Source of the DNA: Streptomyces roseochromogenus subsp. oscitans DS 12.976
Lineage (GTDB): Bacteria > Actinomycetota > Actinomycetes > Streptomycetales > Streptomycetaceae
Assembly (NCBI RefSeq): GCF_000497445.1
Contig: NZ_CM002285.1
Span: 740,299 to 782,046 of the forward strand
DNA: 41,748 nt
Direction of reading: 5' to 3'
Shown: positions 26,278 through 41,748 of the stretch, piece after piece
How positions within the stretch are numbered: the first letter of the stretch is position 1
Layout of the letters: each line of letters starts with the position of its first letter
Translations under genes and position numbers: made by a program
Notes under the pieces: model-generated
Databases searched by the model: none
Seen by the model: the letters and a program-made list of their open reading frames with translations, nothing else
Told to the model about the DNA's origin: nothing

Positions 26278-29200
26278 TCAGGCCAGCTCGACCAGTAGGT
26301 CGCCGCCCTCCACCTGCTGGATGCGGTTGATGGCCAGGCGGGAGATTCGGCCTGCCTTGGGGGCGGTGATGGTGGCCTCCATCTTCATCGCCTCGATGGT
26401 GGCTACGGTGGCACCGGCCGCCACCTCGTCGCCCTCGGTCACGGCGAGGGTCACCACGCCGGCGAACGGGGCTGCCACATGGCCGGTGTTGGCGCGGTCG
26501 GCCTTCTCCGTCACCGGTACGTCCGAGGCCGCGGCGCGGTCGCGGACCTGGATGGGGCGCAGTTGACCGTTGAGCGTGGACATCACGGTGCGCATACCGC
26601 GTTCGTCGGCCTCGCCGATGGCCTGCAGTTCGATCAGCAGCCGGACGCCGGGCTCCAGATCGACGGCGTACTCCTTGGCCGGGCGCAGGCCGTAGAAGAA
26701 GGCCTTGCTGTCCAGGACGCTGGTGTCGCCGAAGGCCTGCCGGTGAGTGTCGAACTCCCGTGTCGGGGCGGGGAACAGCAGCCGGTTGAGGGTGGCCCGG
26801 CGGTCCTTGGCCAGCCCCTCCCGGTCCTCGGCGGAGAGTTCGGGCGCGGGCTTGGGCGCGGCCCGGCCCTGGAGTGCCTTGGTGCGGAACGGCTCGGGCC
26901 AGCCGCCGGGCGGGGTGCCCAGTTCGCCGCGGAGGAAGCCGATCACCGAGTCCGGGATGTCGAACCTGTCGGGTGTCTCCTCGAAGTTCTCCGGGGAGAC
27001 GCCGGCGCCGACCAGGTGCAGGGCCAGGTCACCGACCACCTTCGAGGACGGGGTGACCTTGACCAGGCGGCCGAGGATGCGGTCGGCGGCCGCGTACATC
27101 GCCTCGATGTCCTCGAAGCGGTCGCCGAGGCCGAGCGCCACGGCCTGGGTGCGCAGGTTGGACAACTGGCCGCCGGGGATCTCGTGGTGGTAGACGCGGC
27201 CGGTCGGGGAGGCGAGGCCCGCCTCGAACGGGGCGTAGATCCTGCGGACCCCCTCCCAGTACGGCTCCAGATCGCCGACCGCCTGCAGATCGAGGCCGGT
27301 GGGGCGGTCGGAGTGGTCGGTGGCGGCGACGAGCGCCGACAGCGACGGCTGCGAGGTCGTACCGGCCATGGAGGCCACCGCGCCGTCCACCGCGTCGGCG
27401 CCCGCCTGGATCGCGGCGAGGTAGGTGGCGAGCTGCCCGCCCGCCGTGTCGTGCGTGTGCAGGTGCACGGGCAGGTCGAACTCGCGGCGCAGCGCGGAGA
27501 CGAGCTTGGCGGCGGCCGGGGCGCGCAGCAGCCCGGCCATGTCCTTGACCGCGAGGACGTGCGCGCCCGCCTCGACGATCTGCTCGGCCAGCCGCAGGTA
27601 GTAGTCGAGGGTGTAGAGCCGCTCGCCCGGGTCGTTGAGGTCGGCGGTGTAGCAGAGGGCGACCTCGGCGATCGCGGTGCCGGTCTCGCGTACGGCCTCG
27701 ATGGCGGGGCGCATCTGGCCGACGTCGTTGAGGGCGTCGAAGATGCGGAAGATGTCGATGCCGGTGGCGGCGGCCTCCTGGACGAAGGCGTCGGTCACCT
27801 CGGTCGGGTACGGGGTGTAGCCGACGGTGTTGCGGCCGCGCAGCAGCATCTGCAGGCAGATGTTGGGCACGGCCTCGCGCAGCGCGGCCAGCCGCTCCCA
27901 GGGGTCCTCGGCGAGGAAGCGCAGCGCCACGTCGTACGTCGCGCCGCCCCAGCACTCCAGGGACAGCAGCTCGGGCAGGGTGCGGGCGACGACCGGGGCG
28001 ACGGCGAGGAGGTCCTTGGTGCGCACGCGGGTGGCGAGCAGGGACTGGTGGGCGTCGCGGAAGGTGGTGTCGGTGACGCCGATCGTCGGCGACTCGCGCA
28101 GCCGGCGGGCGAAGCCCTCGGGGCCGAGGTCGACCAGCAACTGGCGGGAACCGGCGGGAGGTTCGCCGGTCGGCAGCGGTGGCAGCTTGGTTACCGGGTC
28201 GAGCAGGTCGGGGCGTTCGCCGTGCGGCTTGTTGACCGTCACGTCGGCGAGGAAGGTGAGCAGCTTGGTGCCGCGGTCGGCGGAGGAGCGGGCGGTGAGC
28301 AGGTGCGGGCGCTGCTCGATGAAGGAGGTGGTGACGCGGCCCGCCTGGAAGTCGGGGTCGTCCAGGACGGCCTGAAGGAACGGGATGTTGGTGGCCACGC
28401 CGCGGATGCGGAACTCGGCCACGGCACGCCGGGCCCGGCCGACGGCGGCCCTGAAGTCCCGGCCCCGGCAGGTGAGTTTGACCAGCATCGAGTCGAAGTG
28501 CGCGCTGATCTCCGTACCGGCGTGGGTGGTGCCGCCGTCCAGGCGGATGCCGGAGCCTCCCGGGGAGCGGTAGGCGCTGATCCGGCCGGTGTCCGGGCGG
28601 AAGCCGTTGGCGGGGTCCTCGGTGGTGATACGGCACTGGAGGGCGGCGCCGCGCAGGGTGATGGTGTCCTGGGCGAGGCCGAGGCCGGCGAGGGTCTCGC
28701 CGGAGGCGATCCGCAGCTGGGCCTGGACCAGGTCGACGTCCGTGACTTCCTCGGTCACGGTGTGCTCGACCTGGATGCGCGGGTTCATCTCGATGAAGAC
28801 GTGGTTGCCGTCGCGGTCCAGGAGGAACTCGACGGTGCCCGCGTTGCGGTAGCCGATCTCACGGGCGAAGCGGACGGCGTCGTCGCAGATCCGCTCCCGC
28901 ACCTCGGGGTCGAGGTTGGGGGCGGGGGCCAGCTCGATGACCTTCTGGTGGCGGCGCTGGAGCGAGCAGTCGCGTTCATAGAGGTGGATGACGTTGCCCT
29001 CGCCGTCGGCGAGGATCTGCACCTCGATGTGGCGCGGGTCGACGACGGCCTTCTCCAGGAAGACGGTCGGGTCGCCGAACGCGGAGGCGGCCTCGCGGGA
29101 GGCGGCCTCGATGGACTCGCGCAGCTGGGCGGGTTCCGCCACGCGGCGCATGCCGCGCCCGCCGCCGCCCGCGACGGCCTTGACGAAGACGGGGAAGCCG

Positions 29201-29652
29201 ATCTCCTCGGCGGCGCGCACCAGTTCGTCCACATCCGTGGAGGGCTGGGAGGAGCCGAGCACGGGGACGCCGGCGGCGCGGGCGGCGGCGACCGCGCGGG
29301 CCTTGTTGCCGGTCAGCTCCAGGGTGGCGGCGCTCGGGCCGACGAAGGTGATGCCCGCCTCCTCGCAGGCGCGGGCCAGTTCGGGGTTCTCGGACAGGAA
29401 GCCGTAGCCCGGGTAGACGGCGTCGGCACCGGCCCGGCGGGCGGCGCCCACGATCTCCTCGACGGAGAGATAGGCCCGCACCGGGTGCCCCGGCTCCCCG
29501 ATCTCGTACGCCTCGTCGGCCTTCAGCCGGTGCAGTGAGTTGCGGTCCTCGTGCGGGAAGACGGCGACGGTGCGCGCGCCGAGTTCGTAGCCCGCCCGGA
29601 ACGCGCGGATCGCGATCTCTCCACGGTTGGCGACCAGCACCTTGCGGAACAT
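26278..29652 (-). CDS. pyc: Pyruvate carboxylase
   Basis: 1124 residues, ATG at 29652, single-chain type. Domains in order: biotin carboxylase (MFRKVLVANRGEIAIRAFRA; ATP-grasp loop KAVAGGGGRGMR; EMNPRIQVEHTVTEE), carboxyltransferase (GVTDTTFRDAHQSLLATRVR; lysine of AVKDMAGLLR, carboxylated in homologues; metal ligands in HLHTHDT), a PYC allosteric/tetramerisation domain, and the biotin carrier domain with EAMKMEA, where Lys1090 is biotinylated. It makes oxaloacetate from pyruvate, ATP and bicarbonate in the cytosol, replenishing the TCA cycle during growth on sugars or amino acids. Full length; no lesion seen. It is convergent with the secreted propeller gene and follows the rhomboid-like gene on the same strand after a 156-base gap. 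Confidence 0.95.
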   Translation of the reverse strand: MFRKVLVANRGEIAIRAFRAGYELGARTVAVFPHEDRNSLHRLKADEAYEIGEPGHPVRAYLSVEEIVGAARRAGADAVYPGYGFLSENPELARACEEAGITFVGPSAATLELTGNKARAVAAARAAGVPVLGSSQPSTDVDELVRAAEEIGFPVFVKAVAGGGGRGMRRVAEPAQLRESIEAASREAASAFGDPTVFLEKAVVDPRHIEVQILADGEGNVIHLYERDCSLQRRHQKVIELAPAPNLDPEVRERICDDAVRFAREIGYRNAGTVEFLLDRDGNHVFIEMNPRIQVEHTVTEEVTDVDLVQAQLRIASGETLAGLGLAQDTITLRGAALQCRITTEDPANGFRPDTGRISAYRSPGGSGIRLDGGTTHAGTEISAHFDSMLVKLTCRGRDFRAAVGRARRAVAEFRIRGVATNIPFLQAVLDDPDFQAGRVTTSFIEQRPHLLTARSSADRGTKLLTFLADVTVNKPHGERPDLLDPVTKLPPLPTGEPPAGSRQLLVDLGPEGFARRLRESPTIGVTDTTFRDAHQSLLATRVRTKDLLAVAPVVARTLPELLSLECWGGATYDVALRFLAEDPWERLAALREAVPNICLQMLLRGRNTVGYTPYPTEVTDAFVQEAAATGIDIFRIFDALNDVGQMRPAIEAVRETGTAIAEVALCYTADLNDPGERLYTLDYYLRLAEQIVEAGAHVLAVKDMAGLLRAPAAAKLVSALRREFDLPVHLHTHDTAGGQLATYLAAIQAGADAVDGAVASMAGTTSQPSLSALVAATDHSDRPTGLDLQAVGDLEPYWEGVRRIYAPFEAGLASPTGRVYHHEIPGGQLSNLRTQAVALGLGDRFEDIEAMYAAADRILGRLVKVTPSSKVVGDLALHLVGAGVSPENFEETPDRFDIPDSVIGFLRGELGTPPGGWPEPFRTKALQGRAAPKPAPELSAEDREGLAKDRRATLNRLLFPAPTREFDTHRQAFGDTSVLDSKAFFYGLRPAKEYAVDLEPGVRLLIELQAIGEADERGMRTVMSTLNGQLRPIQVRDRAAASDVPVTEKADRANTGHVAAPFAGVVTLAVTEGDEVAAGATVATIEAMKMEATITAPKAGRISRLAINRIQQVEGGDLLVELA

Positions 29653-30765: not shown

Positions 30766-31221
30766 GAGACACGGCAGCCCATCGCCTTCGGCTCCGCCGA
30801 CACGTCCATCGCCCCCTTTTACCCCGCTCCCGGCATGCCGGTGGCGGGGCGTTTTTTGGTCATCCGCCCGTTTGAAACGTCATCGTATAGATGTACGGAT
30901 CTTGCCCCGTCACCGCACCCCTGCGTACGGAGCGCGACGGCCCCGCCTCAGCCGCCCTTCCCGCCTGCGGTCATGCGTCCGGTCCCTCCCCCGGTGTGGG
31001 CCTCTGTGGTGGTGAGGCCCGATCGCTGACAGTTCAGCGAGCCGGGAGGCGGGCGTCAAGATCCATTGCGGAAGCACACGGGTGTGGGAAGACCCACAGG
31101 TGTGCGGCGACGGAATCCGGGCCCGGGAGGCAACCTCGGCCCCCGCGGATCCGTCCTCCCATACAGGCTCCTGTACAGCCCTGTTGGGGAACTCCCTCTC
31201 CGCCAACCGGAGCAGCGCGCC
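30766..31221. other. Gene-free region upstream of the aldo/keto reductase
   Basis: I see no coding sequence here on either strand. It contains a plus-strand terminator (30822-30857) and, at 30883-30896, CATC-GTATA-GATG, a short dyad in an AT-rich patch that may belong to the promoter of the leftward rhomboid-like gene. A MerR regulator gene, expected next to the promoter at 31222, is absent. Confidence 0.5.
30822..30857 (+). terminator. Strong intrinsic terminator with no upstream gene on its strand
   Basis: CCCCGC (30822-30827) pairs with GCGGGG (30844-30849) around the perfect palindrome CCGGCATGCCGG (30830-30841), and is followed by G then six Ts (30852-30857). It terminates rightward transcription only. 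The nearest plus-strand gene to its left ends at 26152; in between lie only leftward genes. Confidence 0.7.
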
Positions 31222-31252
31222 TTGACTTCGAGAGCGCTCCAACTCGTAGCGT
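31222..31252 (+). promoter_or_regulatory. MerR-type promoter with 19-bp spacer
   Basis: TTGACT (31222-31227) and TAGCGT (31247-31252) are 19 bases apart, too long for normal RNA polymerase contact but typical of promoters untwisted by MerR-family activators. The spacer region 31225-31244 is a dyad with 14 of 20 symmetric positions centred on AGCG (between 31234 and 31235). The aldo/keto reductase ATG is 66 bases downstream of the -10 box. Confidence 0.55.
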
Positions 31253-31317
31253 CGCAGACGTCCGGCCCCGTGCCGTACCCACGACGATCGAGTGTGCAGG
31301 AAAGGCTGGCACATCAC

Positions 31318-32307
<990 letters not shown>

Positions 32308-32340: not shown

Positions 32341-32413
32341 CGTCTGCGGGTTCGTTGTGGTTGCTCACGCCCACGCGGCGGCAGCCGCATATCAGACACA
32401 GCCCCGCGCCCCT
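32341..32413. repeat. 73-bp dispersed intergenic element, copy 2
   Basis: 64 of 73 bases match copy 1 (26165-26237), with no gaps needed. As in copy 1 it lies shortly after the stop of a rightward gene (33 bases) and reaches the end of a convergent leftward gene; here it overlaps the MFS stop codon by 2 bases. The hairpin is GCGGC-GGCA-GCCGC. Confidence 0.75.
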
Positions 32414-33770
32414 AGGCTGTTGTACGCGCCGCAGTCGCCAAGTCCAGGTCCGTCGTCTCCGGCGCCAGGAAGTGGGAGACCAAACCGCCCAGGGCCAGGA
32501 CCGCGGCGCCCGCCAGCAGGACGAAGCGGGCACCGAAGTGGTTCAGGCCCATCGGGAGCAGGAAGGTGCCTATGGCGGCACCGACCCGGCTCATCGCGGT
32601 TGCGAAGCCCACGCCCGTGGCGCGCAGCGAGGTCGGGAACACCTCCAGCGGGTAGACGGCTGTGAGCGCGCTGGAGGCGGCGTTGAGGAAGATGAAGAAC
32701 AGGAAGCCGCCGACGATGACCGGCGTGGACTTCGGCCACATCGCGACCACGGCGAGCGCGGCCGCGGTGATCCAGAACGGCGGGATCAGCAGCTTGCGCC
32801 GGCCGATGCGGTCGACGACCAGGCAGCCGGCGGTGACCCCGGCAACGGCGGTGAAGGAGTAGACGAGCAGCGCGGCGACCGCGTTGTCGCCCATGTTCAG
32901 GGCGTCGAAGACCTGGGTCCAGAAGGTGCCGATGGCGAAGTACGGCAGCACCAGCGCGGCCCAGAACACACTCGCGAAGACCGTGCTGCGCAGGTGCCGG
33001 CGGCTGAACAGCGCGCGCAGGCCCTGCCGTTGGGGTTCGGCCGTCTCCGCCAGCTCGGCACTGACGTCGATGTCGATGCCGTAGCGCGCGATGAGCTGTT
33101 CGGCCTCCTCGCGTCGGCCCTTGCTGAGCAGCCAGCGCGCCGACTCCGGGACCCCGCCGCGCAGCGCCACGCAGACCAGGGCGATGACCGCGCTGCTGGC
33201 CAGTGTGTAACGCCAGCCGCCGTGGACGTCCGCGAAGACGGCACCGACGACGGTCGCGAGCGCGTAGCCGACGTACCAGCTGATCTCCAGGCTGGCGAGC
33301 AGCCGGCCGCGGCCCTTGCGGGGCGCGTACTCGGACAGCAGCGGGGCGCCGATGGCGTACTCGCCGCCGATGGCGATGCCCATCGCCAGCCGGATGAGGA
33401 AGAGCTGGAGTCCGTCGGTGACGAGGAACTGGAGCACCGAGCCGACCAGGAAGATCAGCATGTCCGCGAGGAACACCGGGCGTCTGCCGTAGCGGTCGGC
33501 GAGCCGGCCGAAGAGCGGTCCGCCGACGAAGATGCCGATCAGCGGGGAGGCGCCGACCAGGCCCTGCATCACCGTGGACAAGTGCAGATCGGTGGTCAGG
33601 GCGCCCATGGCCATGCCGATGCCGCCGATGATGTAGCCGTCGATGCCCTCGCCGATCTGTGTGGCGAGCTTCAGCTTGGTGTGCAGGCGGCGGCGTTCGC
33701 GGAGCAGGTCCGGCGAGACCGGCATGCCGGGCGTGTCGAACTGGTGTTCAGTCGTAGGCGTCGTTGCCAT
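32412..33770 (-). CDS. MFS transporter, sugar-porter/acid symporter type
   Basis: 452 residues with 12 predicted membrane helices. Signature loops are GRLADRYGRRPVF (between helices 2 and 3) and the matching VDRIGRRKLLI in the second half, with the PESARW motif after helix 6 and a C-terminal APETTDLDL like the PET motif of sugar porters. Such proteins import sugars, sugar acids or aromatic acids with protons. It lies 82 bases downstream of the aldehyde dehydrogenase and after the IclR gene on the same strand, so it is probably the importer for the substrate of the whole 32-41 kb regulon. Confidence 0.85.
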   Translation of the reverse strand: MATTPTTEHQFDTPGMPVSPDLLRERRRLHTKLKLATQIGEGIDGYIIGGIGMAMGALTTDLHLSTVMQGLVGASPLIGIFVGGPLFGRLADRYGRRPVFLADMLIFLVGSVLQFLVTDGLQLFLIRLAMGIAIGGEYAIGAPLLSEYAPRKGRGRLLASLEISWYVGYALATVVGAVFADVHGGWRYTLASSAVIALVCVALRGGVPESARWLLSKGRREEAEQLIARYGIDIDVSAELAETAEPQRQGLRALFSRRHLRSTVFASVFWAALVLPYFAIGTFWTQVFDALNMGDNAVAALLVYSFTAVAGVTAGCLVVDRIGRRKLLIPPFWITAAALAVVAMWPKSTPVIVGGFLFFIFLNAASSALTAVYPLEVFPTSLRATGVGFATAMSRVGAAIGTFLLPMGLNHFGARFVLLAGAAVLALGGLVSHFLAPETTDLDLATAARTTA

Positions 33771-33852
33771 GGGCGGTCCTTGTCTGGGGACGGACGGTTC
33801 CAGAGCCGTGGGGGGCGGGTCCGGCAGAGATGGGTGAAGAACGGGGGGTGGG

Positions 33853-35331
33853 TCAGGGGGTGGGCCAGTCCAGGGCGATGTACTGCGTCTCCAGGAACGC
33901 CTCGATGCCCTCGCGGCCGCCTTCCCGGCCGAGTCCGGACTGCTTGACGCCGCCGAAGGGTGCGGCCGGGTCGGACAGCAGGCCCCGGTTGACGCCGACC
34001 ATGCCCGCCTCCAGGCGCTCGGCGAGCCGCAGGGCGCGGCCGACGTCGCGCGAGTAGACGTAGGCGGCGAGGCCGTGGACGGTGGCGTTGGCGCGGGCCG
34101 CCATCTCGTCCTCGTCGGTGAAGGTGGTCAGCGGGGCGACGGGGCCGAAGACCTCCTCGTGGAGGATGCGGGCGTCGTCGGGGACGTCGGTGAGGACGGT
34201 CGCGGGGTGATAGAAGCCGGGGCCGCGCGGGGCGGTGCCCTGCGCGGCGATGCGTGCGCCTCGGTCGAGCGCGTCCTCGACGAGGGAGCGGATCTTGTCG
34301 ACGGCGGCGCGGTTGATCATCGGGCCGAGGGTGACGCCCTCCTGGGCGCCGGGCCCGGTGCGTACGGCGGCCATGGCGGCGCCGAACTTCGCGGTGAACT
34401 CGGCGGCGACGGCCTCGTGGACGTAGAACCGGTTGGCGGCGATGCAGACCTCGCCGCCGCCGCGCATCTTGGCGTCCATCGCCCCGCTCACGGCCGCGTC
34501 GACATCGGCGTCCGCACAGACGACAAAGGGAGCGTTGCCGCCGAGTTCCATGGTCACGTTGACGACGTTGGCGGCGGCCTGGCCCAGCAGGACCTTGCCG
34601 GTGGCGGTGGAGCCGGTGAAGGAGAACTTGCGGACCCGTTCGTCACCGAGCCAGGCGGAGACGACCTCGGGGGCGCGGTCCGTGGGCAGCACGTTCAGCA
34701 GGCCGTCGGGCAGACCGGCCGCGGCCAGCAGGGCGGCGACCGCGAGCGCGGTGAGCGGGGTCTCGGGGGCCGGCTTCAGCAGCACCGGGCAGCCGGCCGC
34801 GAGGGCCGGGGCGATCTTGCGGGTGGCCATGGCGGCCGGGAAGTTCCACGGGGTGACGAACGCGGTGACGCCGACCGGGTGCCTGCGTACGACGTGCCGG
34901 AAGCCGCCGCCGGGCGCGTCGCCGAACGAGGAGCCGATACGGACGGCCTCCTCGGCGAACCAGCGGAAGAACTCGGCCGCGTAGCCCACCTCGGCGAGCG
35001 CGTCCCGGCGGGCCTTGCCGTTCTCCCGGACGATCAGGCCGGCGAGCGTGTCGCGGTGCTCGATCATCAGCCGGAAGGTGTCGTGCAGGATCTCCGAGCG
35101 GCGCCGGGGCGAGGTGGCCCGCCAGCCGGCCGCTGCCTCCTCGGCGGCGGCGAGGGCCGCACGGGCGTCCTCCGCGCCGGCGTCGGACACCCAGCGCACC
35201 GGCTCGCCGGTGGCCGGGTCGTAGACCGGGTAGGTCCGGCCGTCGGCGGCCGGGAGCCAGCGGCCGCCGAGGAACACATCACCGTCGGCGAGCGGAGCCT
35301 TGGCGAGGGTGTCGATGCCGGCGAGGTTCAT
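33853..35331 (-). CDS. NAD(P)-dependent aldehyde dehydrogenase, succinate-semialdehyde dehydrogenase-like
   Basis: 492 residues. The catalytic pair is Glu262 in MELGGNAPF and Cys296 in GEVCIAANRFYV; they are 34 residues apart, as usual. Other markers are FVTPWNFPAAMATRKIAPAL, KFSFTGSTATGK, EEVFGPVAPL and PFGGVKQSGLGREGG. The sequence is closest to the GabD/succinate-semialdehyde dehydrogenase class, which oxidises small semialdehydes such as succinic, glutaric or 2-oxoglutaric semialdehyde. The usual GQTC around the nucleophile is GEVC, an atypical but cysteine-containing variant. It has its own promoter (35382-35410) with the shared GTTGY-N7-GCAAC dyad upstream and probably reads into the MFS gene. 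Confidence 0.85.
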   Translation of the reverse strand: MNLAGIDTLAKAPLADGDVFLGGRWLPAADGRTYPVYDPATGEPVRWVSDAGAEDARAALAAAEEAAAGWRATSPRRRSEILHDTFRLMIEHRDTLAGLIVRENGKARRDALAEVGYAAEFFRWFAEEAVRIGSSFGDAPGGGFRHVVRRHPVGVTAFVTPWNFPAAMATRKIAPALAAGCPVLLKPAPETPLTALAVAALLAAAGLPDGLLNVLPTDRAPEVVSAWLGDERVRKFSFTGSTATGKVLLGQAAANVVNVTMELGGNAPFVVCADADVDAAVSGAMDAKMRGGGEVCIAANRFYVHEAVAAEFTAKFGAAMAAVRTGPGAQEGVTLGPMINRAAVDKIRSLVEDALDRGARIAAQGTAPRGPGFYHPATVLTDVPDDARILHEEVFGPVAPLTTFTDEDEMAARANATVHGLAAYVYSRDVGRALRLAERLEAGMVGVNRGLLSDPAAPFGGVKQSGLGREGGREGIEAFLETQYIALDWPTP

Positions 35332-35381
35332 GGGCTGCTCTTTTCCTCCGTCCCGGACGGGGTTCCGTCCGATGCGCGGTG

Positions 35382-35410
35382 AATTTACGAGCGCGTCATA
35401 CGGCCGACAA
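35382..35410 (-). promoter_or_regulatory. Promoter of the aldehyde dehydrogenase/MFS unit
   Basis: On the minus strand TTGTCG (plus 35405-35410) and TAAATT (plus 35382-35387) are separated by 17 bases. The -10 box is 50 bases from the dehydrogenase ATG. The dyad at 35437-35453 begins 26 bases upstream of the -35 box. Confidence 0.6.
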
Positions 35411-35436
35411 GGCCACTCAGCCGGATCGCAACCGGG

Positions 35437-35453
35437 GTTGCTGTGAGGGCAAC
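35437..35453. promoter_or_regulatory. Candidate IclR operator, site 1
   Basis: GTTGC-N7-GCAAC. A third half-site, GCAACC (35428-35433), overlaps to form GCAACC-GG-GGTTGC with the first arm. The same GTTGY-N7-GCAAC arrangement occurs at 36303-36319. Confidence 0.55.
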
Positions 35454-35460
35454 TCGCTGA

Positions 35461-36249
35461 TCACAGAGGGGTCTTCCGGGGCAGCGGCGCGGGGCGGGGC
35501 TCCCAGCCGAGCAGCGTGGACACCCGGGCCGCGGCGCGAGCCGTCGTACGCCCGGCCTCGTCGAGCCGGTCGCCGAGGCGGGCCTTGGGCGCGGAGATGT
35601 TCAGCGCCGCGACGACCCGGCCGCGGAAGTCCCGTACCGGTGCGGACACGCCGACCAGGTCCGCCTCGAACTCCTCGCTGACCCGGGCGTACCCGCGTCG
35701 CCTGGCCTCCTGGATCAGCGACCACAGCTCGGGCACCGGCATCTCGCCCGTCGTGCCGAAGCGGACGTACAGCTCGTCCGGGGTGGCGTCGGCGAGCAGG
35801 ACCCGGCCGGCGGACAGCCGCCATGCGGGCACCCCGCGGCCCTCCCAGCCGTGCACGCGGAAGGAGTGCCCGGAGACCGACAGCAGGGTGAGCACCTCGC
35901 GGTCGTGCAGGACGCAGAGGTGGCTCGTCTCCTCCAGGTCCGCCGAGAGCGCGTGCATGACCGGCTCCGCGACGCGCACGAGCCGGCTCTCGGAGGTGCG
36001 GGCGACCAGCGAGAACAGCCGCCAGCCCAGGCGGTACTCCAGGGTGTCCGGGTCGCGTTCGACGATCCCCTCGGCGGCCAGGGCCTTCAGGGCGCGGGAG
36101 ATCTGGGTCTTCTCGCGGCCGACGAGCTGGGCCAGCCGGACCACACCGAGGCCTCCGGCGCGCTGCGCCTCGTCGGAGGCGAGGGCTTCCAGCAGATCGA
36201 TGTCCCGGCGCAGACCGTGCCCGCGCGCGGCGGAGGGAGTGTCCGTCAC
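35461..36249 (-). CDS. IclR-family transcriptional regulator
   Basis: 262 residues. The N-terminal winged helix-turn-helix is RDIDLLEALASDE ... GVVRLAQLVGREKTQISRAL, followed by KALAAEGIVERDP. The C-terminal ligand-binding domain includes HLCVLHDREVLTLLSVSGHS, LSAGRVLLADATPDEL and DFRGRVVAALNISAP. IclR proteins control catabolic genes, often divergently transcribed, in response to acids made in the pathway. It sits between the leftward dehydrogenase/MFS unit and the rightward fae operon, with a GTTGY-N7-GCAAC dyad in each of the two flanking gaps. The site positions upstream of the -35 boxes suggest activation of both units; 36303-36319 also lies 54 bases from its own start. Confidence 0.85.
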   Translation of the reverse strand: MTDTPSAARGHGLRRDIDLLEALASDEAQRAGGLGVVRLAQLVGREKTQISRALKALAAEGIVERDPDTLEYRLGWRLFSLVARTSESRLVRVAEPVMHALSADLEETSHLCVLHDREVLTLLSVSGHSFRVHGWEGRGVPAWRLSAGRVLLADATPDELYVRFGTTGEMPVPELWSLIQEARRRGYARVSEEFEADLVGVSAPVRDFRGRVVAALNISAPKARLGDRLDEAGRTTARAAARVSTLLGWEPRPAPLPRKTPL

Positions 36250-36302
36250 GGCGCCATCCTAGGCACGCCGATCCCTCGGAGAACCCCCAGGTCAGAGCTT
36301 GA

Positions 36303-36319
36303 GTTGTCCGGAGAGCAAC
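36303..36319. promoter_or_regulatory. Candidate IclR operator, site 2
   Basis: GTTGT-N7-GCAAC, the same half-sites and spacing as 35437-35453. It ends 25 bases before the -35 box of the fae promoter and lies 54 bases upstream of the IclR gene start, so one site could serve both directions. Confidence 0.55.
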
Positions 36320-36344
36320 CGGCATTTCGATTCCCTGGACCGCC

Positions 36345-36373
36345 TTGCCGACGGCAGGTGACGGACCTAGATT
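36345..36373 (+). promoter_or_regulatory. Promoter of the fae operon
   Basis: TTGCCG (36345-36350) and TAGATT (36368-36373) with a 17-base spacer. The leader to the fae ATG is about 115 bases; I see no strong structure in it. Confidence 0.55.
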
Positions 36374-36492
36374 CGCCGCATCGGGCCGTAGGAACTGCCC
36401 CGAATGCGGGGTTCACGCATGATGTGCGGTTCCGGCCCGCTCGCGTCCTGGTTCGCCCGTCGAACCCCGTCACCGAAGGTCCTGGAGTTCCG

Positions 36493-37068
36493 ATGCCTTC
36501 CCCGGAGTCATGTGCCGCGCCGGATTCATCCGCCGATTCCTTTGCCGCGACCGCGCTGATCGGCGAGTCCTTCGTCGGTGACGGCGTGAACGCCGCGCAC
36601 ACCAACGTCGTGATCGGCCGCAAGGGCGGCCCGGTCGAGACGGCCTGGGCGACCGCGCTGGCCACGCCGAGCGCCGGGCATGTGCCGTTCCTGACGGTCG
36701 TACGGCCGTCGGTGCCGGTCAAGCCGGCGACCCTGTTCGTCACCAAGGCCGCCGCCCGGGGCGACCTGCACGAGCGGGCCACCTGGGGCAGCGCTCAGGC
36801 GGGTCTGGCGCAGGGTGTCCTCGACGCGGTCGCGGAGGGCCTTCTCCCGGCCGGGGAGGCCGACGAGCTGCTGATCATCGCGGCCGTCTGGGTCAATCCC
36901 GGCGTCGACGACCTCGACGCCTCCTTCCGCAACCAGCGCGCGGCGGCCTACGGCGCCGTCCGGGCCGCGGTGACGGGCTCGCCCTCTGTGGCCGACGTGC
37001 TGGACGCGGCCGAGGAGGGCCCGGCGAACCCGTTCTACACACCGTCCGCGGAGGTGCTCGCCCGGTGA
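36493..37068 (+). CDS. fae: Formaldehyde-activating enzyme (Fae) homologue
   Basis: 191 residues, ATG at 36493 after CTGGAG. Family blocks are ALIGESFVGDGVNAAHTNVV, IGRKGGPVETAWATALA, GHVPFLTV, TLFVTKAAARG, TWGSAQAGLAQGVLDAV, IIAAVWVNPGVDDLDA and a C-terminal NPFY. His36 corresponds to the catalytic His17 of the methylotroph enzyme, which condenses formaldehyde with tetrahydromethanopterin. Compared with the canonical roughly 170-residue enzyme there is an N-terminal extension of about 19 residues. Streptomyces are not known to make tetrahydromethanopterin, so the role here is unlikely to be the classical one: an aldehyde-handling or carbon-carbon step in the pathway is an inference. Its stop overlaps the start of the enolase-superfamily gene. 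Confidence 0.85.
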   Translation: MPSPESCAAPDSSADSFAATALIGESFVGDGVNAAHTNVVIGRKGGPVETAWATALATPSAGHVPFLTVVRPSVPVKPATLFVTKAAARGDLHERATWGSAQAGLAQGVLDAVAEGLLPAGEADELLIIAAVWVNPGVDDLDASFRNQRAAAYGAVRAAVTGSPSVADVLDAAEEGPANPFYTPSAEVLAR

Positions 37069-38177
37069 AGATCACGGACATCTCGCTCGACCGGTTGCGC
37101 CTGGAGCTGGACCCGCCGTTCCGGGCGGCCTGGGACCCGGTGCCGCGCGGCCACTTCGACGCCACGATCGTGCGGGTGCACACCGACGAGGGGATCACCG
37201 GCATCGGCTCCGGCGACCTCATGGACGGCTTCGGCACCTACAAGCACCTGTTCGTCGGCGAGGATCCCCTCGACATCACCCGGCATGTGAAGGCCATCGA
37301 GACGGCCAGTTTCCATGGCGCCCCGTACTGGCCACTGGAGGCCGCGCTGTGGGACATCATCGGCAAGGTGCACGGCCGGCCGGTGTCCGAACTGTTCGGC
37401 AACGCGGCGAAGAAGCTGCCCGCGTACGCGTCCTCCGGCGAGCTGAAGTCCCCCGAGGAGCGGGTCGCGACCGCGCTGAAGGTGCGTGAGGCCGGGTTCC
37501 GGGCGATGAAGATCCGCATCGACCGAAACCGTGTCGACGAGGGTGTCGCGGCGGTCCGGGCCGTGCGCGAGGAACTCGGCGATGACTTCGACATCATGGT
37601 CGACCTCAACCAGGCCTGGCGGATGGCGGGCGACACCGCTGACGCCTCCGACCTCGCCAAGACCCGCAAGATCATCGCCCGGCTCGCCGAGCTGGACGTG
37701 TTCTGGGTCGAGGAGCCGCTGCCGTACGCGGACCTGGACGGGTTCAAGCGGCTGCGCGCCGAGAACCCGGGCGTGCGCATCGCGGCCGGCGAGATGCATC
37801 ACTCGGTGCCCGAACTGCTGCGCTACCTGGAGGAGGACGCCCTCGACGTCTACCAGATGGACGTCGTCCTCGCGATCGGTATGCACCGCGCCCGCACCCT
37901 CGCCGAGCTGGCCCAACTGAAACACCGTCAGTTCACACCGCACAGCTGGACGAACGGCATCGGGGTGCTCGCCAACCTGCATGTGTCGGCGGGCGTCGGC
38001 GGCGGCCCGTACTTCGAGTTTCCCTACGACCCGCCCGGCTGGACCCCCGAGCGCCGCGACTTCATGCTCGCCGAGCCGGTGCGCGTGGACGCCGACGGCT
38101 GTCTCGAAGTCCCGGACAGGCCGGGGCTGGGCGTGGAGCTGGACGAGGACGCGATCGACCGCTGGAGGGTGAAGTGA
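37065..38177 (+). CDS. Enolase-superfamily enzyme, mandelate racemase/acid-sugar dehydratase subgroup
   Basis: 370 residues from GTG 37065 (GGAGG about 10 bases upstream; overlaps the fae stop). The barrel carries the subgroup residues in order: Lys in RAMKIRID, the metal ligands Asp in IMVDLNQAW, Glu in WVEEPLPY and Glu in IAAGEMHH, then the Asp-His dyad in YQMDVVLAIGM and TPHSWTNGIG, and Glu in FEFPYDPPGW. This set is used for proton abstraction next to a carboxylate, most often beta-elimination of water from a polyhydroxy acid, less often racemisation. It is probably the first step after import by the MFS protein. The natural acid cannot be deduced from sequence. The next gene starts within its stop codon. 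Confidence 0.85.
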   Translation: MKITDISLDRLRLELDPPFRAAWDPVPRGHFDATIVRVHTDEGITGIGSGDLMDGFGTYKHLFVGEDPLDITRHVKAIETASFHGAPYWPLEAALWDIIGKVHGRPVSELFGNAAKKLPAYASSGELKSPEERVATALKVREAGFRAMKIRIDRNRVDEGVAAVRAVREELGDDFDIMVDLNQAWRMAGDTADASDLAKTRKIIARLAELDVFWVEEPLPYADLDGFKRLRAENPGVRIAAGEMHHSVPELLRYLEEDALDVYQMDVVLAIGMHRARTLAELAQLKHRQFTPHSWTNGIGVLANLHVSAGVGGGPYFEFPYDPPGWTPERRDFMLAEPVRVDADGCLEVPDRPGLGVELDEDAIDRWRVK

Positions 38178-39703
38178 CGTACGCGATCGAGGAGTTGCTG
38201 ACCCGCTCGTACGACGAGTGGCGGGCGGCGGCCGGAAAACTCGTCTTCGAGACCCGCCCGTTCATCGACGGCGTGTTCACGGACGCCGTCTCCGGCGAGG
38301 TGTTTCCGAGTACCTCCCCGCGCGACGGCGGGGTGCTGGCCGAGGTGCAGGCGGCCTCGGCCGAGGACGTCGACCGGGCCGTACGGTCCGCCCGTACCGC
38401 CTTCGAGGACGGCCGCTGGCGGGACCTCGCGCCCAAGGAGCGCAAGCGCATCCTGCTGCGCTGGGCGGAGCTGATCCTGGCGAACGCCGAGGAGCTGGCG
38501 CTGCTCGACACGCTGGAGATGGGCAAGCCGATCACCGAGTCGCTGCGTGTGGACGTGGCCAAGACGGCCGAGACGATCGCCTGGTACGCGGAGACGATCG
38601 ACAAGACGTACGACGAGGTCGCCCCGACCCCCGGTGACGCGCTCGCACTGGTCACCCGGGAGCCGCTCGGTGTCATCGGCGCCGTCGTCCCGTGGAACTA
38701 CGCGCTGCTGATCGCCAGTTGGAAGCTGGGCCCGGCTCTCGCCACCGGCAACAGCGTGGTGCTGAAACCGGCCGAGCAGACCTCGCTCGGCGCGCTGCGG
38801 CTGGCCGCGCTCGCCACCGAGGCGGGACTGCCGGACGGTGTGTTCAACGTGGTCCCCGGGCGGGGCGAGGTGGCCGGGCAGGCGCTGGGCCGGCACCCGG
38901 ACGTCGACAAGATCGCCTTCACCGGCTCGGCGGAGGTGGCCCGGCTCTTCCAGGTGTACGCGGGCGAGTCCAACGGCAAGCAGGTCGCCGTCGAGGCGGG
39001 CGGCAAGTCACCCCAACTCGTCCTGGCGGACGCCGACATCGAGGCCGCCGCCTCCGCCGTGGCCTGGGGCATCTTCTACAACGCGGGGCAGACGTGCAAC
39101 GCGGGCTCGCGAGTCGTCGTGCACGCGTCGGTCAAGGACGAACTCCTCGCCGCCGTACGCCGGATCACCGCCTGCACCTTCCGCGTTGGCGACCCGCTCG
39201 ACCCGGCCACGGTGCTGGGCCCGATCGTGGATGAGGCTCAACTCGCCAAGGTCCTCGGCTATATCGAGCGCGGCACACAGGACGGCGCTACCGTGCTGCT
39301 CGGCGGGAACCGGGTGCTCGCCGAGACCGGCGGCAGCTATGTGGAGCCCACCGTGCTCGACGAGGTGGCGAACACCTCGGTGGTCGGGCAGGAGGAGATC
39401 TTCGGACCGGTGCTCGCGGTGGTGTCGTACGACGATGACTCCGCCGACAACGCGGAAGGCGTACGGCTCGCGAACCAGAGCGACTTCGGGCTCGTCGCCT
39501 CCGTGTGGACCCGGGACGTGACCGTCGCCCACCGCACCGCGCGGCGGCTGCGGGCCGGCACCGTGTGGATCAACACCTTCGACGCCAGCGACGTCATCAC
39601 CCCGTTCGGCGGCTTCAAGGCGACCGGCGCGGGGCGCGACAGGTCCCTGCACGCGCTGGACGCGTACACGGCGCTCAAGACGACATGGATCAACCTCGCC
39701 TGA
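38174..39703 (+). CDS. Aldehyde dehydrogenase (PuuC/AldA-like)
   Basis: 509 residues from GTG 38174 in a GTGA overlap, with GGAGG immediately upstream. Catalytic Glu274 (VEAGGKSPQLVL) and Cys308 (NAGQTCNAGSR) are in place; VVPWNYALLIASWKLGPALA, IAFTGSAEVARLF and EEIFGPVLAVV complete the NAD-binding and substrate regions. It resembles gamma-glutamyl-aminobutyraldehyde or lactaldehyde dehydrogenases and oxidises an aldehyde to the acid with NAD. Tight coupling to fae and the dehydratase places it in the same pathway; it is a second aldehyde dehydrogenase besides the leftward one. A 59-base gap follows. Confidence 0.88.
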   Translation: MTYAIEELLTRSYDEWRAAAGKLVFETRPFIDGVFTDAVSGEVFPSTSPRDGGVLAEVQAASAEDVDRAVRSARTAFEDGRWRDLAPKERKRILLRWAELILANAEELALLDTLEMGKPITESLRVDVAKTAETIAWYAETIDKTYDEVAPTPGDALALVTREPLGVIGAVVPWNYALLIASWKLGPALATGNSVVLKPAEQTSLGALRLAALATEAGLPDGVFNVVPGRGEVAGQALGRHPDVDKIAFTGSAEVARLFQVYAGESNGKQVAVEAGGKSPQLVLADADIEAAASAVAWGIFYNAGQTCNAGSRVVVHASVKDELLAAVRRITACTFRVGDPLDPATVLGPIVDEAQLAKVLGYIERGTQDGATVLLGGNRVLAETGGSYVEPTVLDEVANTSVVGQEEIFGPVLAVVSYDDDSADNAEGVRLANQSDFGLVASVWTRDVTVAHRTARRLRAGTVWINTFDASDVITPFGGFKATGAGRDRSLHALDAYTALKTTWINLA

Positions 39704-39762
39704 ACCTTCATCAGGCGAACACTCCCCCTCTTTCTCTTCTCTCATCTCAGCGAGGACAACTG

Positions 39763-40698
39763 ATGAGGATCGGTTTCATCGGCCTGGGCAACATGGGACG
39801 CCACATGGCCCGGCACCTGATCCACGCGGGACATCTGGTCACCGTGCACGACACCCGGCCCGAGGCCGCCGCCGAGCATCTGGCGCTCGGCGCGCGCTGG
39901 GCCGACACCCCCGCCGACTGCGCCCGGGACGCCGAGTTCCTGATCACCATGCTGCCCAACCCGCGCATCGTGGAGGAGGTGCTGCTGCGCGGCGGGGCCG
40001 CAGAGGCGCTGCCCGAGGGCGCGCTGTGGATCGACATGTCGACGTCCACTCCGGCCGCCGCCGAGCGGGTCGCGGCCGAGGTGCTGGACGCGCGCGGGGT
40101 GCGCCGGCTGGACGCGCCGGTCAGCGGGATGGCGCGGGGTGCCGAGGCGGGCACGCTGCAGATCTTCGCGGGCGGCGCGGACGACGACTTCCGGATCGCG
40201 CTGCCGGTCTTCGAGACGCTCGGCGACTCCGACCGGGTACTGCACGTCGGCCCGCTCGGCGCCGGTTACACGGTCAAGCTCATGATCAACCTGTTGTGGT
40301 TCAGCCATCTGGTCGCCACCAGCGAGGTGCTGGCGATGGGCGTCAAGGCGGGCGTCGATCTGGGCGTGCTGCGGGGCGCCCTGCTCGCGTCGCCCGCCGC
40401 GTCACACTTCCTGGAGAACGACATCATGTGCGTACTCGCCGACGGCGACTACGACGACTCCTTCGCGATGGCGCTGGCCTGCAAGGACCTGGGCCTCGCC
40501 GTCGACCTCGGCCGCGATCTCAACGTCTCCGCGGAGCTGTCGGCGCTGGTCGAGCAGATCTACCGCCGCGCCAAGGCACGGCACGGCGACCTCGCCGGCG
40601 AGATGAGCCCGGTACGGCTCTACGAGGAGCTGGCCGGGCGGGAGTTCAGGCTGCCGTCGCCGGCCGCCGCGTTCGAAGCCACCGCTCTCACGGTCTGA
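39763..40698 (+). CDS. 3-hydroxyisobutyrate dehydrogenase-family reductase (tartronate-semialdehyde reductase-like)
   Basis: 311 residues, ATG at 39763 with GAGGA 6 bases upstream. The N-terminal Rossmann motif is GFIGLGNMGRHMARHL, the substrate motif DAPVSGMARGAEAGTLQIFA, and the catalytic Lys172 lies in GYTVKLMINLLW. The C-terminal helical domain contains KDLGLAVDLGRDLNV. The family interconverts beta-hydroxy acids and semialdehydes with NAD(P); GarR and GlxR reduce tartronate semialdehyde during glucarate and glycolate use. In this operon it probably handles a semialdehyde released from the sugar acid. Confidence 0.88.
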   Translation: MRIGFIGLGNMGRHMARHLIHAGHLVTVHDTRPEAAAEHLALGARWADTPADCARDAEFLITMLPNPRIVEEVLLRGGAAEALPEGALWIDMSTSTPAAAERVAAEVLDARGVRRLDAPVSGMARGAEAGTLQIFAGGADDDFRIALPVFETLGDSDRVLHVGPLGAGYTVKLMINLLWFSHLVATSEVLAMGVKAGVDLGVLRGALLASPAASHFLENDIMCVLADGDYDDSFAMALACKDLGLAVDLGRDLNVSAELSALVEQIYRRAKARHGDLAGEMSPVRLYEELAGREFRLPSPAAAFEATALTV

Positions 40699-40714
40699 CG
40701 CGACCGAGTCTTCC

Positions 40715-40760
40715 CAGGAGCCGCACGCCATGACTTCCGTCAGGAGCCGCACCCCATGAC
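40715..40760 (+). repeat. Tandem duplication of ribosome site plus start codon
   Basis: A 20-base block containing AGGAG and ATGAC occurs at 40715-40734 and again at 40741-40760 with one mismatch, period 26 bases. Each copy supplies a Shine-Dalgarno site and an ATG at the same spacing. The second copy starts the alcohol dehydrogenase gene. Confidence 0.85.
40730..40759 (+). CDS. Possible 9-residue leader peptide
   Basis: The upstream ATG of the duplicated start region opens MTSVRSRTP and ends at TGA 40757-40759, which overlaps the ATG of the alcohol dehydrogenase (ATGA). It has its own AGGAG. Translation would couple to, or compete with, the real start. No family; whether it is translated is unknown. 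Confidence 0.35.
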   Translation: MTSVRSRTP

Positions 40761-41748
40761 CGACAGCTTCACCCCTTTGAGTCTCGACACCGTCTGCCGG
40801 GTCGAGTTCGGCCCCGGCCGGATCGGGCTGCTGCCCGAACTGATCGCGGACACCGGTCACCACCGCGCGTTCGTCGTCACAGACCGGGGACTGCGCGCGG
40901 CCGGTGTCGCCGGGCGCCTCCTGAAGATCCTGGACGTGGCGGGAGTGGAGTACGCCGTGTACGACGAGGTGGCGCCCAATCCGTCCACCGGGAACGTCGA
41001 CGCGGGTGCCGCCCGGGCCCGCGCCTTCGGTCCGGCGGTGGTCGTGGCGCTCGGCGGCGGCTCGGTGCTGGACGCCGCGAAGGGCATCTCCCTGCTGGTG
41101 GGCAATCCGGACGCGGTCGCCGCCGACGCCGACCACCTCTGGGAGGCGGCCGACGGACTGCCGTTGATCGCCGTACCGACGACCTCCGGGACCGGCGCGG
41201 AGACCAACGGCTTCGGCGTCATCGAGGACGCGGCCGCCTGCCGCAAGGTGTACATCGGGCACCCGTCCGTCAAGCCCCGCATCGCCCTGCTCGACCCGGA
41301 GCTGACGCTCGGCCTGCCACCGGCGGCGACGGCCGCGACCGGCATCGACGCTCTCGTCCACGGCATCGAGTCGCTGGCCTCGCGCGGTGCCAACGCGTTC
41401 TCCCTGGCGTACGCCACCCAGGCCGTGGCGATGACCGGCCATGCCCTGCCGCTCGCCCACCGGGACGGTTCGGACCTCGACGCCCGCGCCGAGCTGATGA
41501 TGGGCGCGCATCTCGCGGGCCAGGCCCTGACCCTGTCCGGGCTCGGCCTGGTTCATGGCATCGGCCATGCGCTCACCGCCCACACCGGCACCCCGCACGG
41601 CGTCGCCCTGGCCGCCGTCCTGGAGGAGGTCATGGAGTTCAGCGCGCCGGCGGCGCGGGAGGCGTACGAGCGGGCGGCGCGGGCCCTGCGGGTGCCGCCG
41701 CCCGCCGACGGCGACGTGGGCGCGGGCGGCCGTCACGGCGGTACGGGA
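40756..41748 (+). CDS. Iron-containing (type III) alcohol dehydrogenase, 3' end outside the window
   Basis: 331 codons are present with no stop before the window edge; family members are about 370-390 residues, so most of the enzyme is included. Markers are VALGGGSVLDAAKG (NAD-binding), IAVPTTSGTGAETN, and the metal ligands in TGIDALVHGIE (Asp and His) and LVHGIGHALTAHTG followed by TPHG (two His). It interconverts an alcohol and an aldehyde, or reduces a keto acid as in maleylacetate reductases. As the last visible gene of the fae operon it is the fourth enzyme there that handles a carbonyl group. Start chosen at the second of two duplicated ribosome site/ATG units. Confidence 0.9.
   Translation, partial: MTDSFTPLSLDTVCRVEFGPGRIGLLPELIADTGHHRAFVVTDRGLRAAGVAGRLLKILDVAGVEYAVYDEVAPNPSTGNVDAGAARARAFGPAVVVALGGGSVLDAAKGISLLVGNPDAVAADADHLWEAADGLPLIAVPTTSGTGAETNGFGVIEDAAACRKVYIGHPSVKPRIALLDPELTLGLPPAATAATGIDALVHGIESLASRGANAFSLAYATQAVAMTGHALPLAHRDGSDLDARAELMMGAHLAGQALTLSGLGLVHGIGHALTAHTGTPHGVALAAVLEEVMEFSAPAAREAYERAARALRVPPPADGDVGAGGRHGGTG

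What the first reader, a model, noticed from the sequence alone, without database searches (positions are those of the whole stretch)
32412..41748. Uncharacterised acid-sugar regulon built around a Fae homologue
Seen: one divergent unit encodes an MFS importer, IclR, an enolase-superfamily dehydratase/racemase with a full catalytic set, two aldehyde dehydrogenases, a GarR-like reductase, an Fe-type alcohol dehydrogenase and Fae, with 4-base overlaps fae-dehydratase-aldehyde dehydrogenase. Known: Fae condenses formaldehyde with tetrahydromethanopterin in methylotrophs and methanogens, a cofactor not known in Streptomyces. Inferred: Fae here works on an aldehyde formed in polyhydroxy-acid breakdown, either as a catalyst with another carrier or as an aldolase/lyase replacement, since no aldolase gene is visible. 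This is the strongest candidate for a new pathway.
Basis: partly seen in the sequence, partly recalled or inferred. Interest (0 to 1): 0.78.

Follow-up and report, generated by a model that had tools for sequence, protein, structure and literature searches.

The report
Formaldehyde-enzyme relative in hydroxy-acid regulon
A soil Streptomyces carries a tightly regulated gene set that looks made for breaking down an unidentified hydroxy acid, and in it sits a relative of a formaldehyde-handling enzyme in a host without that enzyme's usual cofactor, which suggests that this branch of the family does something not yet described.

Summary
Window 32412-41748 encodes MFS, SSADH-like ALDH1, IclR, Fae family, mandelate-racemase-type dehydratase (Dht), ALDH2, GarR-like and Fe-ADH (cut by the window end), with 4-base overlaps fae-dht and dht-ALDH2. 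An operator-like palindrome occurs exactly twice in the 9.78-Mb genome, ahead of fae and of ALDH1. In 28 related loci IclR, Fae and GarR are in 28, MFS 27, ALDH1 26, Dht/ALDH2/FeADH 25; the next family is in 8. Dht lies in 39 of 60 Fae loci examined, always downstream of Fae on its strand. Mch, Ftr and beta-RFAP synthase are absent from this genome; Mch is in 1 of 45 Fae-bearing genomes tested, one that also has a canonical Fae on the same contig. This branch keeps the His, Lys and Gln shared with canonical Fae, differs at concerted positions and lies outside the canonical clade. My reading: an H4MPT-independent Fae-like enzyme acting on a pathway aldehyde, probably feeding the GarR/ALDH1 semialdehyde enzymes. 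Substrate and reaction are unproven.

The parts
32412..33770 (-). MFS importer (Sugar_tr)
   Evidence: in 27 of 28 related loci
33853..35331 (-). ALDH1, succinate-semialdehyde-dehydrogenase-like (TIGR01780 530 bits, below cut-off 646)
   Evidence: 26 of 28 loci; also beside Fae in Burkholderiaceae, Ensifer and S. clavuligerus plasmids
35425..35441 (-). operator-like site 2, GCAACNNNNNTTKCGAT, between IclR and ALDH1
   Evidence: one of only two exact matches in the genome; not in the alignment from which the pattern was drawn
35461..36249 (-). IclR-family regulator
   Evidence: 28 of 28 loci
36315..36331 (+). operator-like site 1 in the divergent iclR-fae region
   Evidence: exact copies on this side in 26 of 28 related loci (my count)
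36493..37068 (+). Fae-like protein, 191 aa, non-canonical branch
37065..38177 (+). Dht, mandelate-racemase-type dehydratase; 4-base overlap with fae
38174..39703 (+). ALDH2 (best model PuuC 564 bits, below cut-off 850); 4-base overlap with dht
39763..40698 (+). GarR-like beta-hydroxyacid dehydrogenase
   Evidence: 28 of 28 loci
40756..41748 (+). Fe-type alcohol dehydrogenase (best model lactaldehyde reductase), cut by the window end

Best explanation
This is an IclR-controlled catabolic module. MFS imports a hydroxy acid or its precursor; Fe-ADH and ALDH2 may oxidise it to the acid; Dht dehydrates the acid to a 2-keto-3-deoxy acid; and the Fae-like protein, without tetrahydromethanopterin, acts on the carbonyl compound formed, releasing or presenting a multi-carbon aldehyde (semialdehyde or hydroxyaldehyde) that GarR (or an aldo-keto reductase elsewhere) reduces and SSADH-like ALDH1 oxidises. 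Shown: gene set, shared operator-like sites, conserved core, absence of the H4MPT genes tested, divergence of Fae. Inferred: binding by IclR, the order of steps, the substrate and the lyase-like reaction.
For: A minimal set of importer + Fae + GarR or AKR + SSADH-like ALDH recurs in four architectures: L028; S. clavuligerus with an ABC importer and GarR 70%; four Burkholderiaceae plasmid loci with AKR and MFS; Ensifer with AKR and an ABC importer. GarR at E<=1e-80 occurs in exactly the 14 of 246 Streptomyces genomes that have the close Fae. Dht at E<=1e-60 occurs in 14 of 246, all with a Fae. Fae and Dht are co-oriented, Fae first, in 39 of 39 linked loci, at -4 bases in 28. Operator-like sites. 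H4MPT genes absent. Concerted residue changes with His, Lys and Gln kept. Genome G804 has a canonical Fae on the contig of its Mch gene, and a second, Fae-like gene next to Dht and GarR.
Against: No reaction has been measured. In the class of G415 the Fae-Dht clusters often carry class-III-like Zn alcohol dehydrogenases rather than GarR/ALDH1, a superfamily that includes formaldehyde dehydrogenases. 21 of 60 Fae loci have no Dht in the stretch examined; some have neither Dht nor ALDH1 nearby (L108, L110-L112, L114, L115), and several lie beside a HalD-like oxygenase instead. TIGR03126 still calls this protein Fae. In G021 Dht stands without GarR or a linked Fae. One dropped row, the Fae homologue L120 of Methylobacterium sp. 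DM1, does not show the conserved His.
Confidence: 0.4

Rival explanations
1. Formaldehyde capture with another carrier: the pathway releases formaldehyde (for example a tetronate dehydrated to 4-hydroxy-2-oxobutanoate, which could split to formaldehyde and pyruvate) and the Fae-like protein joins it to tetrahydrofolate, mycothiol or another carrier.
For: The His shared with canonical Fae is kept in 77 of 77 compared rows (L120 dropped beforehand). Class-III-like Zn-ADHs, relatives of formaldehyde dehydrogenases, stand beside Fae-Dht in the class of G415 (three proteins tested). D-threonate dehydratases giving 2-oxo-4-hydroxybutyrate are described in PMC10079672 (passages), and an aldolase joining pyruvate and formaldehyde to it in PMC8879981 (passages).
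Against: The most constant partners are semialdehyde-type enzymes; no formaldehyde-producing enzyme is constant among the neighbours seen. The three Zn-ADHs tested score below the cut-offs of the formaldehyde dehydrogenase models.
Confidence: 0.3
2. Accessory role: the Fae-like protein binds an aldehyde to protect or channel it (or supports Dht) without catalysing a step of its own.
For: Translational coupling of fae and dht is suggested by the 4-base overlap in 28 of 39 linked loci; small single-domain protein.
Against: Invariant His, Lys and Gln across all branches compared point to catalysis; Fae persists in clusters without Dht.
Confidence: 0.15
3. Ordinary Fae using H4MPT that escaped detection or is taken up.
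For: Passes the TIGR03126 cut-off; same fold as 1Y5Y.
Against: Mch, Ftr and beta-RFAP synthase absent here; Mch absent in 44 of 45 Fae-bearing genomes tested; residue pattern differs.
Confidence: 0.04
4. Fae is a passenger of a normal acid-sugar operon with no part in it.
For: Dht with IclR and the operator-like site exists without adjacent Fae in G021.
Against: Dht adjacency also in 14 of 32 loci outside the close relatives; the same ALDH family beside Fae in Pseudomonadota. Presence of Fae in 28 of 28 related loci is no evidence, since they were found by Fae.
Confidence: 0.04

Closest known systems
[quoted passage not shown] M. extorquens, PDB 1Y5Y/1Y60)
   Same: Fold (Foldseek E 3.6e-15, TM by target 0.81, from a model of mean pLDDT 68.5); sequence E 3e-26; His, Lys and Gln conserved
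   Different: No H4MPT genes found in the host; 65 of 66 Fae-like rows have Asn where 11 of 11 canonical rows have Asp, plus Gln to His and FIHW to WV[ND]P changes; catabolic context
Distant Fae homologues Fae2/Fae3 of Methyloversatilis (PMC5023235, passages seen)
   Same: Fae-family proteins without assigned function; single and double deletions gave no growth defect on methanol or methylamine, though fae3 is induced on methylamine
   Different: That host has the H4MPT pathway; whether Fae2/Fae3 belong to this branch was not tested
Galactarate/glucarate (Gar) pathway: dehydratase, GarL aldolase, GarR, GarK (recalled)
   Same: Mandelate-racemase-type dehydratase and GarR-like reductase
   Different: No aldolase or glycerate kinase among the genes conserved in the 28 loci; Fae and two ALDHs instead; family scores below equivalog cut-offs
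E. coli ygcE/ygcU/ygcW/ygcS cluster (recalled; not compared by sequence)
   Same: L040 and L042 carry an FGGY kinase, GlcD-like FAD oxidase, KduD-like SDR and MFS with the Fae core (families tested on L040)
   Different: Fae, GarR and IclR control; resemblance from family names only

Membership tests
Canonical Fae (H4MPT-dependent) | Fae domain above curated cut-offs | tested here: met
   PF08714 178 bits (cut-off 27); TIGR03126 134 bits (cut-off 118)
Canonical Fae (H4MPT-dependent) | Host has H4MPT synthesis / C1 pathway genes | tested here: not met
   PF02289, PF01913, TIGR00144 no match in the 9.78-Mb genome, controls ring; Mch in 1 of 45 Fae-bearing genomes
Canonical Fae (H4MPT-dependent) | Falls in the clade of H4MPT-cluster Fae | tested here: not met
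   11 canonical rows form a 100/100 clade, stem 2.09, without the window protein
Canonical Fae (H4MPT-dependent) | Invariant catalytic His (role recalled) | tested here: met
   His36 in the window; 77 of 77 rows (the divergent row L120 was dropped beforehand)
Canonical Fae (H4MPT-dependent) | Condensation of formaldehyde with H4MPT | not testable with these tools
   needs an enzyme assay
Mandelate-racemase subgroup of the enolase superfamily | Three metal-ligand positions, KxK/KxR and the His-Asp dyad (recalled) | tested here: met
   stretches present and aligned to 3bjs, 3sjn, 5olc, 4ggb, 3ozm
A named acid-sugar dehydratase (talarate/galactarate, arabinonate, galactonate) | Score above the NCBIfam equivalog cut-off | tested here: not met
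   best TalGalacDh 120.8 bits against 500
Single regulon under the local IclR | Shared operator-like site ahead of both gene sets, rare elsewhere | tested here: met
   2 exact sites in the genome, both here; reversed pattern 0; window shuffles mean 0.12 at up to 1 mismatch. The fae-side site was in the alignment that gave the pattern
Single regulon under the local IclR | Binding of IclR to the sites | not testable with these tools
   needs a binding assay

The most novel reading that the evidence does not exclude
The non-canonical Fae branch is a cofactor-free aldehyde lyase (an aldolase- or dehydratase-like enzyme using the conserved His and Lys) that supplies a semialdehyde to GarR/AKR and ALDH1: a new reaction type on the Fae fold and the missing cleavage step of a hydroxy-acid pathway found in Actinomycetota and Pseudomonadota.
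Probability: 0.27. Interest if true: 0.82.

Novelty: new variant of a known kind. Interest (0 to 1): 0.6.

Why it matters
Among the listed relatives, those with a source name are called 'formaldehyde-activating enzyme', 'aldehyde-activating protein' or 'tetrahydromethanopterin hydro-lyase' (120 rows listed in each), yet Mch, a marker of that cofactor's pathway, is in only 1 of 45 Fae-bearing actinobacterial genomes tested. If the branch does something else, an uncounted share of the 2359 hits and 3664 hits (overlapping sets, canonical and non-canonical together) carries a misleading name, and counts of H4MPT-linked C1 metabolism based on fae alone are inflated. The operator-like sites and the fae-dht coupling make the question directly testable.

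Tried and rejected
Canonical H4MPT role: rejected for this genome. An extra conserved cleavage enzyme nearby: none seen; after the eight genes the next family is in 8 of 28 loci. Literature on Fae with enolase-superfamily or acid-sugar genes: of the listings (titles and abstract starts only) (19 of 19 papers; 15 of 15; 13 of 13; 1 of 1; 10 of 1,050; 12 of 32; 6 of 6; 15 of 202), none looked like a description of this module; absence from print is not shown. Papers PMC11264596, PMC10315480 and PMC5209427 (passages) concern the glutathione-dependent Gfa type. PMC8153426 (passages) gives the canonical role. The ygc lead gave one paper, not opened (listing). The structure model is of modest confidence and added only the fold. 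Reading pocket contacts from 1Y60 was not possible: no coordinates at hand, and the structure paper is not held.

Weak points of my own handling. In the tree the label '2OG' was also given to L068 and L075, where I saw no oxygenase gene; the label rests on L070-L073 and L076 (by eye) and a Pfam test of L073 only. Nine near-duplicate rows and L120 were left out of the tree, and L120 (a divergent homologue without the conserved His) out of the residue counts. The operator pattern was drawn from an alignment holding the window's fae-side site and the G021 site, so those two are not independent finds; the ALDH1-side copies and the third copy in L040 are. Four of the eleven 'canonical' rows (L065, L117, L123, L125) were placed there by sequence, not by an Mch cluster. 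Of 47 Fae-bearing genomes seen, two with weak or partial matches (G759, G825) were neither tested for Mch nor fetched. Several fetched contigs are short (L070, L101, L103, L110, L111, L113), so a missing neighbour there means little. The Fisher value ignores phylogeny and block transfer. Gene calls in fetched loci come from my own codon-score script, which missed Fae in L068, L070 and L074 (Fae there was found by tblastn). Fae-Dht distances take the Dht start as aligned to the window protein. Most neighbour names are by BLAST to my reference set or by eye. Zn-ADH families were tested on three proteins, the aldo-keto reductase family on one. Of the nine plasmid records with Pseudomonadota Fae at 46-51% (H17-H25) I looked at five.
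Full report
What is there. The window lies at G000:C1:740299-782046 of a 9.78-Mb genome that is Streptomyces (closest relatives). Eight genes were confirmed: on the minus strand IclR, ALDH1 and MFS; on the plus strand Fae, Dht, ALDH2, GarR-like and Fe-ADH. fae/dht and dht/ALDH2 overlap by GTGA. Fe-ADH runs out of the window.

One regulon. Aligning iclR-fae intergenic regions showed a conserved imperfect palindrome, about GCAAC-N5-TTKCGAT. In the whole genome it occurs exactly twice, at window 36315-36331 (ahead of fae) and 35425-35441 (ahead of ALDH1), and its reversed control never; window shuffles give a mean of 0.12 at up to one mismatch against 2 seen. Of the 28 related loci, 28 hold at least one exact copy, 26 hold one on the fae side and 20 hold separate copies on the fae and ALDH1 sides (my counts). 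In L040, where MFS has moved downstream, a third copy stands before it. The pattern was derived with the fae-side sites in hand, so the ALDH1-side and MFS-side copies are the independent evidence. That IclR binds it is inferred.

A discrete module. Clustering the predicted proteins of the 28 loci gives IclR, Fae and GarR in 28, MFS in 27, ALDH1 in 26, Dht, ALDH2 and Fe-ADH in 25, and the next family in 8. These loci were found by Fae similarity, so Fae being in 28 is by construction. Three loci lack Dht: L028 keeps only the core; L040 and L042 have an FGGY kinase, a GlcD-like oxidase and a KduD-like SDR instead (families tested on L040). In 246 sampled Streptomyces genomes Fae is in 15, Dht (E<=1e-60) in 14, all with Fae, and GarR (E<=1e-80) in 14, exactly the 14 with a close Fae. 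The two exceptions are informative: G161 has Fae and GarR without Dht; G021 has Dht with an IclR (66%), an MFS (47%) and the operator-like site but no GarR at that threshold and only a divergent, unlinked Fae (33%) beside another ALDH1/MFS/IclR set. The Fae-Dht table is 14/1/0/231, but the block moves together, so the value is descriptive.

Reach beyond Streptomyces. Fae is in 17 of 396 sampled Actinomycetota, 20 of 249 genomes of the class of G415 (19 above the family cut-off; the Fae of G415 matches a Gaiellaceae entry at 100%) and 3 of 39 of the class of G433. In the phylum sample, the least biased one, Dht stands beside Fae in 8 of the 17 (G000, G067, G286, G354, G415, G446, G517, G606). 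Of 60 loci examined for Dht (28 + 16 + 16), 39 have it, always downstream of Fae on the same strand: 28 at -4 bases, 10 between -1 and +35, one at +192. Outside the 28 close relatives it is 14 of 32, one of the 32 being a canonical Fae. Others include Fae beside a HalD-like oxygenase (L070-L073, L076; by eye, family tested on L073) and Fae with none of these partners (L108, L110-L112, L114, L115). In five Pseudomonadota plasmid loci looked at (Fae 46-51%) Fae sits with an aldo-keto reductase, an SSADH-like ALDH (46-48% to ALDH1 in the four compared) and an MFS or ABC importer; in S. clavuligerus with an ABC importer annotated for glycine betaine, GarR (70%) and ALDH1 (52%).

Not the canonical enzyme. 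Mch, Ftr and beta-RFAP synthase are absent from this genome, and Mch is in 1 of 45 Fae-bearing actinobacterial genomes tested out of 47 seen. That one, G804, has a canonical Fae on the contig of Mch, with genes that read as formylmethanofuran genes (by eye), and a separate Fae-like gene next to Dht and GarR. Annotated neighbours of canonical Fae in five plasmid loci (L116, L118, L119, L121, L124) are mch and other H4MPT genes. In 77 aligned rows (L120 dropped) His, Lys and Gln are invariant, while canonical Asp is Asn in 65 of 66 non-canonical rows, canonical Gln is His in 63 of 66, and Phe of FIHW is Trp in 63 of 66. The 11 canonical rows form a fully supported clade on a long stem (68 rows). 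The tree does not say which type is older. The predicted fold is that of 1Y5Y, from a model of mean pLDDT 68.5.

How it may work. The most constant company of the non-canonical Fae is an importer, a GarR-like or aldo-keto reductase and an SSADH-like ALDH; these families act on semialdehydes or hydroxyaldehydes (family knowledge, recalled). No cleavage enzyme is conserved in the 28 loci. I therefore commit, at 0.4, to Fae acting on the carbonyl compound of the pathway and giving these enzymes their aldehyde; Dht, ALDH2 and Fe-ADH make the 2-keto acid in the form seen here. The main rival, at 0.3, is formaldehyde capture with another carrier, for which a tetronate route through 4-hydroxy-2-oxobutanoate would be a natural source (PMC10079672 and PMC8879981, passages) and which the class-III-like Zn-ADHs of the class of G415 would suit. 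The substrate is not identified: Dht scores far below the cut-offs of the named acid-sugar dehydratases.

Verdict. A real, conserved module holding a non-canonical Fae, with good evidence of shared regulation. It is a new variant of a known kind until its reaction is measured; Fae homologues of unknown function are already in print (Fae2/Fae3, PMC5023235, passages).

Noticed in passing
L104:5819-9017: Near Fae-Dht in genome G807 stand an aromatic-amino-acid-lyase-family gene and an MttB-family (trimethylamine methyltransferase) gene, which may hint at the substrate class in that lineage.
   Followed up: no
L070-L073, L076: Fae-like genes beside a HalD-like/2OG-Fe(II) oxygenase in other actinobacterial families; a second recurrent Fae partnership (by eye; Pfam HalD for L073).
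   Followed up: partly
L110, L112, L115: Fae-like genes lacking Dht lie about 1.6 kb downstream of a gene that reads as glycine decarboxylase P protein (by eye).
   Followed up: no
L066, L067, L069: In one family (f18) the Fae set lies within an amino-acid permease, agmatinase-family hydrolase and class III aminotransferase cluster; L066 has a 75-codon frame after Fae that may be a Dht remnant (by eye only, no BLAST match).
   Followed up: partly
window 31066-32307: A plus-strand frame that reads as an aldo-keto reductase (by eye) stands just outside the module; it is not among the conserved neighbours, although Burkholderiaceae Fae clusters hold an aldo-keto reductase.
   Followed up: no
window 26278-29652: Large minus-strand gene that reads as pyruvate carboxylase (by eye).
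   Followed up: no
L120:5974-6522: Methylobacterium sp. DM1 plasmid gene annotated 'aldehyde-activating protein' is a divergent Fae homologue without the conserved His, next to glutamate synthase-like and glnT genes.
   Followed up: no
TIGR03126 model: TIGR03126, an equivalog-domain model named formaldehyde-activating enzyme, accepts this non-canonical protein (134 against 118 bits), so automatic naming is likely to mislead.
   Followed up: partly
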